Source of the DNA: Larimichthys crocea
Taxonomy: Eukaryota > Chordata > Actinopteri > Sciaenidae
DNA length: 64,000 nucleotides
Direction of reading: 5' to 3'
Assembly (NCBI RefSeq): GCF_000972845.2
Contig: NC_040013.1
Location: 7,528,061 to 7,592,060 of the forward strand
This document shows positions 57,308-61,612 of the stretch, one piece after another. The position numbers were made by a program, and so were the translations under genes. A model generated the notes under the pieces. It was not told the origin of the DNA and did no database searches. It worked only from the letters and a program-made list of their open reading frames with translations. How positions within the stretch are numbered: the stretch's first letter is position 1; the number at the start of each line of letters is the position of its first letter.

Positions 57308-60300
57308 ATGAATATCATCACAGAATTAAAATTTGTCCCAGCAAGAGACACACATCCTATAATACACTGTGTATTTAATAACAACCTCAAGAAGCTCAAA
57401 AAATTGCTAAAGGACAACAACATTAATGAAACATACCCATGCAGAGAGGTGAAAGACTATATAACCCCACTGATTGCAGCTGTTGTAAAACACAATGTAG
57501 ATATTTGTAGTTTCCTTTTGCATGAAGGTGCAGACCCAAACTGTGGTTCCGAAACTGGCTCAGCACCTTTGCATTATGTCTCACTATTGAACGCTCCACT
57601 TATCTTTGTTGAAAAACTGCTGGAAGCAAACGCTAAACCAAATGTATGTAATCTACATCAAATCACACCACTGCAATATGCTGCTATCAGTAACAGGGAA
57701 GATGTTATGAAAGAGCTCATCGCTGCTGGTGCACAGGTAACATTGTTTCCTGTCAATGATCCTGAACGTATTACACACAATGAAAAATTATCTCAGATGG
57801 TTCATAACCTTGCATCAAAAGGACATGAATTATGCTCAAAAATCAAATATTTTGTGGACATAGAAAATGCTGTGCGAATGAAATCACCTGAAGAAGTGTT
57901 CAAAACTTTTGACAGTCACATGCTGCGGGAGGATCCTCAGAGCCATCTGACCATGATTGAAATTTTCTTTAATTTTTCTGGGCAAAATGAAGAAAAATAC
58001 AGAGAGGGAAGTATGAAATGGCTGAAAGACACTGGAAACGTGAACACCTACATTGCAAATGCTGTTAGTCGATTTCCAAATGTCCCTGAGGCGTTTATAA
58101 CAGTTGTAGTTCATAGCTTACGTGCAGTTCTCTGCACAATGGGAGACATCCCAGATGAGCAAGCACTAGCTATTATTGACAAACTACTGGACCAACTTCA
58201 CAGAAAAGAGAGGCCTAAAATATGGGAAGCTGTACTGCAAACACTCTATGTGATAACACAGAAAACAAAAGGCATGAATGGCTGGGACCCCAACTTTGTT
58301 GAGAAGTTATGCAAAACAGTTGCTCCTTTTATAGAGGAACAATACTCCTCTGACATTAGAGTCTTCACATACAGCATTTTTGCAAACTTACTTTCAGTTG
58401 AACATGCAGCGAGCATCTTTACATCAGTAGGGGTAACTTCAGTGCCTGAGGACATACTGACATCTGCAGACATGAAAATGAATGACAAACTGAAAGAACT
58501 GCTCCGACGACTGAAAAATCATTTCAGCAAACAGAACATGGAATGTGAGGACTTTCCAGCCTTACCAGGATCCAAGAAGAAGAAGAAAAAGAATAAGAAA
58601 AAGAAGGAAAAGGCAGAAAACCCAAATGATGAAGGTTTCAATGCTGAAACTGATCAAACATCAGCTCCTATAGTGGAATCTACTTCAAATGTGAAGCCAT
58701 TCCACTTCAACCCAACTACATCATCAATAACACACAAATGGCTACAAATCAGCAAGAGGTGGAAAGAAAACTTAGAGAAGCTTCTGAGCACTGATGAAAG
58801 TAAAGTGACCAGAATTGGGAGCATGATTTATGTGAATGATGCAAAATTCCGCATAGCAAAGGGAAGTGATGGTACTGAGGTCTTCTTAGGGCTGAGAGAT
58901 GATGGCACTGAAGTTGCTATTAAGAGAATGTCTAAATGCAACTATCAAGTGCTGAAAAATGAAGAAGGGATTCTACGACTTCCAGAGCTTGATCATCCAT
59001 CTATTGTACGTTATGTCGATGCTGCAGAGGATGAGAACTTTGGATATCTTGGTCTTCAGCTTTGTGAATACACTTTGGAGGAATGTATCAGAAACAACGA
59101 TGATGGTCTGTTAAAAAAGAAACTTGTCTATCAGATCCTCGAGAGTTTAAGAGTGCTTCACTGTCAAAATCCTCCAATTCTTCACCGGGATCTCAAACCA
59201 CAGAATGTTTTAATTGGTAAGAAACGTAAAACATATCCTGAATATTTTAATTTATAATTAACATACATCATTTGTTTCCTGAGTTTGTCTACCTGATTTG
59301 TCCTGCAGATGTTAATGGGAGAGCAAGATTAGCTGATTTTGGCATAAGTAGACGGTTACTGAAAGGCCAAACAACTTATCGTACAGGCAGTGCAGGAACA
59401 AAATGCTGGATGGCCAAGGAGACTTTAGCAGATGAAGATGACATCCCATACAAACCGAGTACTGATGTACAGGTCAGTTTTTCTTTGACTCAAATGTAAC
59501 TAATGACTTGGCGAAAAATACTTCCTTAATTACAAAAATGTTCTGTTAATTCTTAAGGTGGCAGGCATGCTGATTTATTATACCCTCTCTGGTGGACACC
59601 ATCCTTTTGGCGACAAGTCCTATAAATGTGAGAGCAACATTCATGAAGGGTTGTACACTTTGGACCATGTTCAAGATGTGGTGGCAAAGGATCTCATTGA
59701 GTGGATGATCAATGCAGAACCAAAGAACAGACCAAAAGTTGAAGAATGCTTGAGTCATCCCTTCTTCTGGACCACTGACAGGTAAGGAAGAAACAACTGA
59801 CTGACTGATGAATTGATGAGATGAATCCATGTCAACTCTCAACTCTCAATTTCTGCCTTTATTGGATGGAATGGTACAAAATTTGGTTCAAACATTCATA
59901 GACGATTTTAATGACTGGTGATCCTCTTTTCATCTAGCCACACCAACAGGATGGCATTTTTGGTTCTGGATGAAATGTGTTCATACTTCACAATTCTGAA
60001 TAGCCACACAGGCAGTTTGAAGTCTGCTACTATATCCTCATCCTGGCTGCACTCACTGCTGTTTTTGAAGTTCGGTGTGCTTATCGGGACCACAGTGCAC
60101 ACTTTCAGTGTCATAGTGATAATGGTGCTAGAGTAAATTATTACAATTCCCCTTTTAAGGAACATTAATGTCACTTCCAAATTTAATGCCAATACATCTA
60201 ACAGTTTTTAATGCATTTCCCACAAATCACCAAAGTCATTACAATTCATCCAATAGGAACCATGATGTCTGAACATAATTTTGAGCCATTGCACCCAGGG

Positions 60301-61612
60301 GACATTGAGATATTCCATAGAATAGGGGAAAACAACTCTGTTTCTTGGCTTTGTAATTAATGCTGGAATTAGGTAGCTAGTTAGCAAGGTAGTCTAAAGT
60401 TTACAGCTTACATAACCTGACAGTCAATCATGTATACCGCTTTGGCACATGGAGAAATCCATACCAGGTCTGTCGTGCTGATTTAGAGTTGTTAGACTAT
60501 GATTGGGCAACTGTTGTATGATATGATACTTTTTAACGTTCTGTTTATTCTACAATTCATATATCCTAAAATAAACTTTTTTTTCCAGAGTGGAATACTT
60601 GAGAAGGACAGGTAACAGGGAGGAGGTGGCAAACTGTCGAAATACTGACCCAAAATTAATTTCTTCGCTTGAAGAATGTGCTGGCAATGTATCCTTCAAA
60701 CAGTGGAAAGATAAGGTGACTGCAACGTAACAAGTCTTCCTTCTCTATTCCTAATTTAAACATGACTAATTATTATTTTGGTGTTGCAGTTTCCACCAGC
60801 GTTGGTCCAGAAGATGGATGCCAAGAACAAAGCCTACCCTGACAACACACTGGGATTACTGCGCTTCATACGAAACCTTCATGAGCATTAGTGAGTGAAA
60901 CTGACTTGAAAGTCATGCAAGGCTTTAAAATATCACTAAAAAGCAATTGTCCATAATTTATCAACACTGAAACAATAATTATACACTTAAAGACAATATG
61001 AGTCTTAAGCATAATGTACAGACTATACTTTTTGTTCTTGCTGATACTGCGCACCTGTATGCCCTGAACAGTTTTTACATAACCACAGTATTTTATAGTT
61101 ATCAAATGGTGAAAAGCAAAAAGAATACTGTGGCACTTAATTTGATAATCCCTAAAACAAAGTTAATTTACTAGCCTGCATTTAAGGAAATTACATCATC
61201 ACATTTTTGACATTACTTAAATAGTTGATTTAAGTAATATTGCTGGTAACTTTCTGTACAAAGCACTAATAGTAATGATTATGCTGAAGTGTTCAGTGGT
61301 CATGACTGTCATAAGTAAACTAGATGACTGTGAAAGATTTGCAAGCTGGGTTTTTAATACTTCTTAAAAAAATATTTATCTTATGTTTGCAGTGCTAAGG
61401 ATGCAGCCCAAGTTGATGTGATGGCCTTTTTTCCTGACCTCTTTGGATGTGTTTACAAATTTGCCAAGACCCAAAGGTGGAATTTAGAGAGTCCCTTGAA
61501 GGAAATGTTTCAGAGAGAACACTTCACCACCAGCTTTGTGATGCCATTGATAAACCTTGAGGAGCACCTGGGTGTCCCAGTTCAAGAGTCTGAACCCAGT
61601 GACTTGAAGTGA
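57308..61612 (+). CDS. Ankyrin-kinase-KEN protein, RNase L/IRE1-like
   Basis: Six coding exons give 914 aa: 57308-59216, 59309-59472, 59558-59781, 60589-60715, 60790-60890 and 61393-61612. Residues about 18-150 hold a few ankyrin repeats (TPLIAAVVKHNVDICSFLL, TPLQYAAISNREDV). Residues about 180-415 look all-helical and are unrecognised, possibly ARM/HEAT-like. A lysine tract follows at 423-435. The kinase domain (about 523-765) keeps VAIK K539, HRDLKPQN with D628, and DFG at 646-648. The C-terminal KEN-type nuclease domain has LLRFIRNLHEHY, in which R836 and H841 match the RNase L catalytic Arg667/His672 as I recall them. RNase L and IRE1 cut RNA after kinase-domain dimerisation. By analogy this is a regulated endoribonuclease, but its ligand and substrate are unknown. 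Human RNase L has nine ankyrin repeats, a DFD-type pseudokinase and 741 aa, so this is not a simple orthologue. An ATG 18 nt after a splice acceptor sets the start. An upstream in-frame ATG at 57215 would read through the intron end. Confidence 0.85.

What the first reader, a model, noticed from the sequence alone, without database searches (positions are those of the whole stretch)
57308..61612. RNase L/IRE1-type nuclease with a non-canonical sensor half
The C-terminal kinase-plus-KEN half is clear. The N-terminal half has only a few ankyrin repeats, then about 230 residues of predicted helices with no recognised family, then a lysine tract (423-435). Known RNase L uses nine ankyrin repeats to bind 2-5A, and IRE1 uses a luminal domain and a membrane anchor. 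Neither sensor is present here. This suggests a soluble KEN nuclease with a different trigger.
Basis: partly seen in the sequence, partly recalled or inferred. Interest (0 to 1): 0.78.

Follow-up and report, generated by a model that had tools for sequence, protein, structure and literature searches.

The report
Fish RNase L relative, new sensor
Bony fish carry an apparently undescribed family of RNA-cutting enzymes related to the antiviral enzyme RNase L, in which half of the known sensor is replaced by an armadillo-type domain, so they probably respond to a different, still unknown signal.

Summary
Window 57308-61612 (+) is a complete six-exon gene for 914 aa in a teleost; its first 766 residues equal a Larimichthys crocea protein. 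It has four ankyrin repeats, a helical domain, a lysine tract (423-435), a kinase and a KEN RNase. The helices fold confidently as an armadillo-repeat domain (pLDDT 89). Relatives occur across teleosts (acanthomorphs, salmonids, cypriniforms, a clupeiform), often in several copies; length-limited searches found the armadillo domain nowhere else. New here: the gene is of RNASEL kind. All five intron phases match human RNASEL, four at the same alignment column; KEN groups with RNASEL, not IRE1; ankyrins 1-4 align to RNASEL 1-4. Yet ankyrins 5-9 are replaced, recalled 2-5A contacts W60 and K89 are absent in 89 of 89 relatives, and the kinase keeps active motifs and the activation loop that RNase L lacks. 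Best reading: a soluble latent kinase-RNase of the RNASEL lineage with a trigger other than 2-5A. Activity, trigger and function are inferred; ERN1's intron map is a missing control. Verdict: new variant of a known kind.

The parts
57308..59216 (+). coding exon 1 (codons 1-636.33): ankyrin repeats, armadillo domain, lysine tract, linker and the first half of the kinase, without an intron; an acceptor AG read at 57288-57289 suggests a 5' non-coding exon upstream
   Evidence: phase-1 end after NVLI as in human RNASEL
57347..57748 (+). four ankyrin repeats (residues about 14-147), corresponding in register to RNASEL ankyrins 1-4
   Evidence: Pfam; model of paralogue; alignment score 118 to RNASEL 24-158, 99 to 57-191, 58 or less from residue 90 on
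57749..58537 (+). armadillo-repeat domain (residues about 148-410), seen only in this fish family in the searches made
58574..58612 (+). lysine tract, residues 423-435, in a linker with very low model confidence (probably disordered)
58850..59770 (+). kinase domain, residues about 515-762 (exons 1-3, introns 59217-59308 and 59473-59557), with VAIK, HRDLKPQN, DFG and an intact activation loop
59309..59472 (+). coding exon 2 (activation loop); 164 bp against 86 bp in human RNASEL, whose loop is missing
   Evidence: PMC2048516 Table 5
59558..59781 (+). coding exon 3 (end of kinase)
60589..60715 (+). coding exon 4 (KEN, with W805)
60790..60890 (+). coding exon 5 (KEN active site: Y824, R836, N837, H841 at 60886-60888)
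61393..61612 (+). coding exon 6 (end of KEN, C-terminal tail, stop)
63537..63659 (+). alternative first exon of the next tandem paralogue (LOC104939709 isoform X6, P0020); the rest of that gene would lie beyond the window
   Evidence: 100% tblastn match over 41 residues

Best explanation
This gene belongs to a teleost family of soluble ankyrin-armadillo-kinase-KEN proteins that share an ancestor with RNASEL. Shown by sequence or model: the domain order, the armadillo fold (predicted), intact kinase and KEN active-site residues, RNASEL-like gene structure and RNASEL-like KEN sequence. Inferred: the protein is a latent monomer; the ankyrin-armadillo solenoid binds a ligand that is not 2-5A (a protein, an RNA or a metabolite made under infection or stress); binding brings two copies together; the kinase then binds nucleotide and autophosphorylates as in IRE1; and the paired KEN domains cut RNA at an Rx4H active site, stopping translation or killing the infected cell. 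Many copies and a faster-changing sensor half suggest immune use, but no function was tested.
For: Six coding exons in both genes; junction phases 1-0-2-0-2 in both; 4 of 5 junctions in the same alignment column, the fifth 7 columns away beside a RNASEL insertion (with human exon lengths from PMC2048516 Table 5). KEN more like human RNASEL than human IRE1 in 99 of 100. The KEN piece alone finds RNase L first in the PDB, weakly (E 0.023; yeast IRE1 0.53). KEN tree separates fish+RNASEL from human+yeast IRE1 with 100/100 support, and fish+human IRE1 is rejected (AU p 0.0095). Ankyrins 1-4 in register with RNASEL 1-4. Active residues: Y 89/89, R 89/89, N 88/89, H 89/89, W 99/99. Kinase: HRDLKPQN 84/89, DFG 88/89, VAIK 82/89. 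Armadillo fold. Whole-model Foldseek: RNase L first (E 6e-14, but TM 0.23), DARPin-armadillo fusions after RNase L and IRE1. Copies: 9 protein clusters on one Sarotherodon contig, 7 on one 412,726-base contig, judged by equal contig length.
Against: The kinase domain is closer to RNASEL than to IRE1 in 0 of 100, and single-sequence search scores IRE1 higher than RNase L (164.8 against 108.2 bits); I read this as RNASEL's pseudokinase having drifted. The tree has only two RNASEL and two IRE1 rows on long branches, and the 12 fish rows formed one side of a branch in only 5% of bootstrap trees, so RNASEL is not shown to be their sister. ERN1's own intron map was not available, so the shared introns could be ancestral to both. 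Window neighbours (a Na/Ca exchanger, mir-31, an EPTP gene) do not suggest the RNASEL locus. An acidic residue of RNASEL (D661) falls in a one-residue gap in the window gene and all 99 aligned members. The full-length model is weak outside the N-terminal half (mean pLDDT 68, pTM 0.43). No expression, interferon induction, RNase or ligand data.
Confidence: 0.6

Rival explanations
1. It is simply the fish RNASEL orthologue: diverged, but still switched on by 2-5A.
For: Gene structure, KEN grouping and ankyrins 1-4 agree with RNASEL; ankyrins 2 and 4 are the ones said to bind 2-5A (PMC4061530, passages); a 2018 study lists fish among animals with OAS genes (PMC6307210, passages).
Against: Four, not nine, ankyrins; at W60 the relatives have I in 75 of 89 and never W, at K89 S in 88 of 89 and never K; F126 is F in only 41 of 89; R155 has no counterpart (contact list recalled). 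The armadillo domain takes the place of ankyrins 5-9. The kinase is not a pseudokinase by sequence. A 2007 study found no RNASEL sequence in three fish species and states that OAS genes are missing there as well (PMC2048516, passages), which conflicts with the 2018 study on OAS.
Confidence: 0.14
2. An IRE1 (ERN) duplicate that gained ankyrin and armadillo domains on its own; likeness to RNASEL is convergent.
For: Kinase closer to RNASEL in 0 of 100; best single PDB match is IRE1.
Against: Five matching intron phases, four at the same column; KEN tree 100/100 with AU p 0.0095 against; ankyrins specifically in register with RNASEL 1-4.
Confidence: 0.08
3. Same lineage, but a different switch: the armadillo groove holds the protein's own lysine tract, as importin alpha holds its basic IBB segment (recalled), and a competing basic ligand releases the RNase; or the tract is a plain nuclear or RNA-binding signal.
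For: Armadillo fold nearest to importin alpha and to designed ARM proteins that bind (KR)n peptides; a basic run follows the domain in 71 of 89 members.
Confidence: 0.1
4. The family signals mainly as a kinase; the KEN domain serves dimerisation or RNA binding, and many copies are decoys or dominant-negative forms.
For: Kinase is the most conserved part (81% mean identity to the window against 68% for KEN); some listed proteins lack KEN or ankyrins in their Pfam column.
Against: KEN catalytic residues are as conserved as the kinase's; missing domains may be gene-prediction errors or isoforms.
Confidence: 0.08

Closest known systems
RNase L (RNASEL), tetrapods
   Same: Ankyrins 1-4, kinase-fold plus KEN order, six coding exons with the same junction phases, KEN sequence and active site
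   Different: Four instead of nine ankyrins, an armadillo domain in place of ankyrins 5-9, kinase with intact catalytic motifs and activation loop, recalled 2-5A contacts mostly changed, often several copies
IRE1 (ERN1/ERN2)
   Same: Active-type kinase with activation loop followed by KEN RNase
   Different: No luminal domain, no membrane anchor; KEN sequence sides with RNASEL; ERN1 gene structure not compared
SARM1 and importin alpha (ARM-domain proteins)
   Different: No sequence relation detected; other effector domains; the fold match does not show function
Other KEN expansions (Oikopleura, monocot plants)
   Same: Lineage-specific multiplication of a KEN nuclease (PMC3710099, passages)
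   Different: Those are described as KEN separate from the kinase; the words fish, zebrafish, Danio and teleost do not occur in that paper's main text

Membership tests
RNase L (RNASEL) | KEN RNase domain with R-N-x3-H active site after a kinase-fold domain | tested here: met
RNase L (RNASEL) | Nine N-terminal ankyrin repeats | tested here: not met
   Pfam ankyrin matches end near residue 145; four helix pairs in the paralogue's model; then an armadillo domain
RNase L (RNASEL) | 2-5A contact residues W60, K89, F126, R155 (list recalled) | tested here: not met
   I, S, I and no counterpart in the window gene; F126 alone is F in 41 of 89 relatives
RNase L (RNASEL) | Pseudokinase: altered HRD/DFG and no activation loop | tested here: not met
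   HRDLKPQN 84/89, DFG 88/89; loop present
RNase L (RNASEL) | Six coding exons, first one running from the ankyrins to mid-kinase, phases 1-0-2-0-2 | tested here: met
   with PMC2048516 Table 5
RNase L (RNASEL) | KEN groups with RNASEL rather than IRE1 | tested here: met
   100/100, 99 of 100 by identity; only two RNASEL and two IRE1 rows
RNase L (RNASEL) | Same chromosomal neighbourhood | tested here: inconclusive
   Window shows Na/Ca exchanger, mir-31 and EPTP neighbours; human RNASEL lies on chromosome 1 (PMC2048516, passage); human positions of the neighbours are recalled only
RNase L (RNASEL) | Activation by 2-5A, RNase activity | not testable with these tools
   Needs a bench assay
IRE1 (ERN1/ERN2) | Signal peptide, ER-luminal sensor, membrane anchor | tested here: not met
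   N-terminus is ankyrin; best hydrophobic mean 1.5, N-terminal 0.35
IRE1 (ERN1/ERN2) | Active kinase followed by KEN | tested here: met
   By motifs only:
IRE1 (ERN1/ERN2) | ERN1 intron positions | not tested
   No ERN1 gene map was available
Armadillo-repeat proteins | ARM solenoid fold | tested here: met
   Predicted model only:
Armadillo-repeat proteins | Sequence match to an ARM family | tested here: inconclusive
   Only a sub-threshold INTS7_N match, 25 bits against 42; no PDB sequence hit

The most novel reading that the evidence does not exclude
Teleost fish run their own multi-copy RNase L-type immune system: an ankyrin-armadillo solenoid reads a non-2-5A signal, an IRE1-like active kinase is the switch, and KEN exons are exchanged between tandem copies so that sensors are paired with different RNA-cutting ends. 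It keeps features of the ancestor of RNase L from before its kinase died.
Probability: 0.35. Interest if true: 0.82.

Novelty: new variant of a known kind. Interest (0 to 1): 0.62.

Why it matters
Fish were reported to lack RNASEL (PMC2048516, passages). This family shows that teleosts carry, often in several copies, a predicted RNase of the same lineage with another sensor. That makes three questions testable in carp, salmon or croaker cells: what besides 2-5A can switch on a KEN RNase, how RNase L's sensor was assembled, and whether its pseudokinase descends from an active kinase. The genes are now annotated under slime-mould or unrelated names (irlB, ppk4-like, 'DENN domain-containing protein 5'), so they are easily overlooked in fish infection data.

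Tried and rejected
Full-length fold of the paralogue P0002: weak outside the N-terminal half (mean pLDDT 68), so no claim on domain packing. Whole-assembly search for further copies: the genome search did not complete. Importin-type peptide binding by the armadillo domain: kept only as a rival. Peptidase_M16_C, Seadorna_VP7, UCH and other weak or stray Pfam matches: set aside as chance or as possible chimeric predictions, without further test. Two paper searches for the 2-5A contacts found nothing, so those residue numbers are recalled. The structure aligner's list is a second look at Foldseek's matches, so families not listed there are not excluded.

Papers. Ten searches of the held library showed no paper on this family. 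Seven returned no paper; of the other three I saw 25 of 627, 6 of 6 and 2 of 2 listed titles and abstract starts. The library lacks most subscription journals. Seen as passages only: PMC2048516, PMC6307210, PMC3710099, PMC4061530.

Rows dropped: 89 of the 120 listed relatives (840-960 aa) went into and the counts; the other 83 of 203 found were never listed. 99 of 275 held proteins had a recognisable kinase plus KEN. Of 14 fish proteins offered to the tree, 11 were kept with the window gene (P0215, P0198 and P0211 had under 90 residues of KEN). Two searches scored only the candidates sharing most words (7989 and 7997), and all protein searches were limited by length.

Full report
What is there. 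The window is teleost DNA: the first 766 residues of the gene are identical to an NCBI-predicted protein of the large yellow croaker, Larimichthys crocea (P0001; taxonomy). The gene at 57308-61612 has six coding exons with clean GT/AG borders and encodes 914 aa. Pfam finds ankyrin repeats, a protein kinase (3e-37) and the KEN family Ribonuc_2-5A (8e-12). PDB sequence search finds IRE1 over 495-863 (3e-47, 165 bits) and RNase L (108 bits), and nothing for the middle domain.

How widespread. The first search listed the best 120 of 203 relatives; the names I read are acanthomorph fish, mostly percomorphs, apart from a ferret name attached to two tilapia proteins. A search with the consensus of the armadillo region, limited to proteins of 275-875 aa, gave 109 hits at E up to 10 among 717 candidates, matching 12-100% of the region, including two salmonids. 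A profile of a salmonid and an unnamed relative, limited to about 274-871 aa, gave 99 hits: 68 are of this family, now with cypriniforms (Triplophysa, Sinocyclocheilus, Carassius, Cyprinus, Ctenopharyngodon and others) and the clupeiform Coilia; the other 31 (P0245-P0275) carry ankyrin domains without kinase or KEN, and the one organism named among them is a planctomycete. No tetrapod or shark was listed, but length limits and word-based screening mean that absence is not shown. Copies are several: nine 90% clusters on one Sarotherodon contig (P0046, P0054, P0057, P0072, P0076, P0094, P0095, P0118, P0165) and seven on one 412,726-base contig (P0218, P0224, P0226, P0227, P0231, P0236, P0238; two are short), as judged by equal contig length.

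RNASEL or IRE1? Four tests. First, gene structure: human RNASEL has coding exons of 1480, 86, 206, 133, 134 and 187 bp (PMC2048516 Table 5, passage). Its junction phases are 1, 0, 2, 0, 2, and so are those of the window gene. Four junctions fall in the same alignment column, the fifth 7 columns away next to a RNASEL insertion. Both genes run without an intron from the ankyrins to the NILI/NVLI of the kinase's catalytic loop. The shorter second exon of RNASEL (86 against 164 bp) fits the activation loop that it lacks. Second, KEN identity: closer to human RNASEL in 99 of 100, while the kinase is closer to RNASEL in 0 of 100. Third, a KEN tree of 16 rows puts fish and RNASEL on one side against human and yeast IRE1 (100/100), and fish with human IRE1 is rejected (AU p 0.0095); the 12 fish rows are one side of a branch in only 5% of bootstrap trees, so the order among fish and RNASEL is open. 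Fourth, the ankyrins score 118 against RNASEL residues 24-158, 99 against 57-191 and 58 or less further on. I conclude a common origin with RNASEL, with ankyrins 5-9 replaced by the armadillo domain. The kinase result is best explained by drift of RNASEL's pseudokinase, but it does count against a simple picture, and ERN1's intron map is a missing control.

Is it active? KEN: Y824 89/89, R836 89/89, N837 88/89, H841 89/89, W805 99/99; R-N-x3-H is the Rx4-6H motif of the HEPN superfamily with its polar residue after R (PMC3710099, passages). RNASEL's D661 falls in a one-residue gap in all 99 aligned members and the window gene. Kinase: VAIK 82/89, HRDLKPQN 84/89, DFG 88/89. By sequence it looks like an active kinase with an active RNase; neither was assayed.

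Trigger. At W60 and K89 of RNase L the window gene has I and S, and no relative of 89 keeps W or K; F126 is I here and F in 41 of 89; R155 has no counterpart (the contact list is recalled). 2-5A is therefore unlikely. Whether fish have OAS at all is told differently by two papers (absent: PMC2048516; present: PMC6307210; passages). The ankyrin and armadillo halves vary more than the kinase (mean identity to the window 59%, 62% and 81%), as expected for a sensor under pressure, though relaxed constraint would look the same.

KEN exchange. Against its tandem neighbour P0002 the window gene is 82-87% identical in the other parts and 96% in the KEN domain. Against P0001 it is 100% identical until the kinase ends and then 69% in KEN; P0001's KEN exons are not in the window. 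P0166 joins sequence exactly at two of the predicted exon borders. Gene conversion, read-through splicing between tandem genes, or an assembly difference could each explain this.

Mechanism and verdict. By analogy with RNase L and IRE1 (established families), ligand-driven pairing, nucleotide binding and phosphorylation of the kinase, then RNA cleavage by paired KEN domains is the most likely course; every step after the anatomy is inferred. This is a new variant of a known kind, undescribed as far as ten searches of an open-access library show.

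Noticed in passing
window 59771-61612, P0001 and P0002: The KEN exons seem to move between tandem copies: 96% identical to P0002 in KEN against 82-87% elsewhere, while P0001 shares the first 766 residues exactly but carries another KEN set.
   Followed up: partly
window 63537-63659: First exon of an isoform of the next paralogue (P0020) lies 1.9 kb downstream of the gene, so a tandem copy probably starts at the window's edge.
   Followed up: partly
window 51718-52629 +: Large ORF with six EPTP repeats (E 8e-61), as in LGI-type proteins (the LGI name is recalled).
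   Followed up: no
window 32170-32250 +: mir-31 precursor, 67 bits.
   Followed up: no
window 19614-19832 and 21062-21382 +: Exons of a Na/Ca exchanger, by eye of SLC24 (NCKX) type.
   Followed up: partly
window 12154-12863 + and 54767-55204 +: ORFs that look by eye like remains of Tc1-type and hAT-type transposases; Pfam gave no match for the two pieces tested (12375-12863 and 54767-55204).
   Followed up: partly
P0046, P0054, P0072, P0094 and others (Sarotherodon galilaeus): Family members carry unrelated names such as 'DENN domain-containing protein 5' or 'AMP deaminase', so annotation transfer is unsafe.
   Followed up: no
P0096, P0103, P0172: Proteins listed for tilapia also bear an nr name from a ferret (Mustela putorius), probably a mislabelled record.
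   Followed up: no
P0126 (Neolamprologus brichardi): Predicted fusion of this family with a ubiquitin hydrolase domain (UCH) after KEN; possibly a gene-prediction artefact.
   Followed up: no
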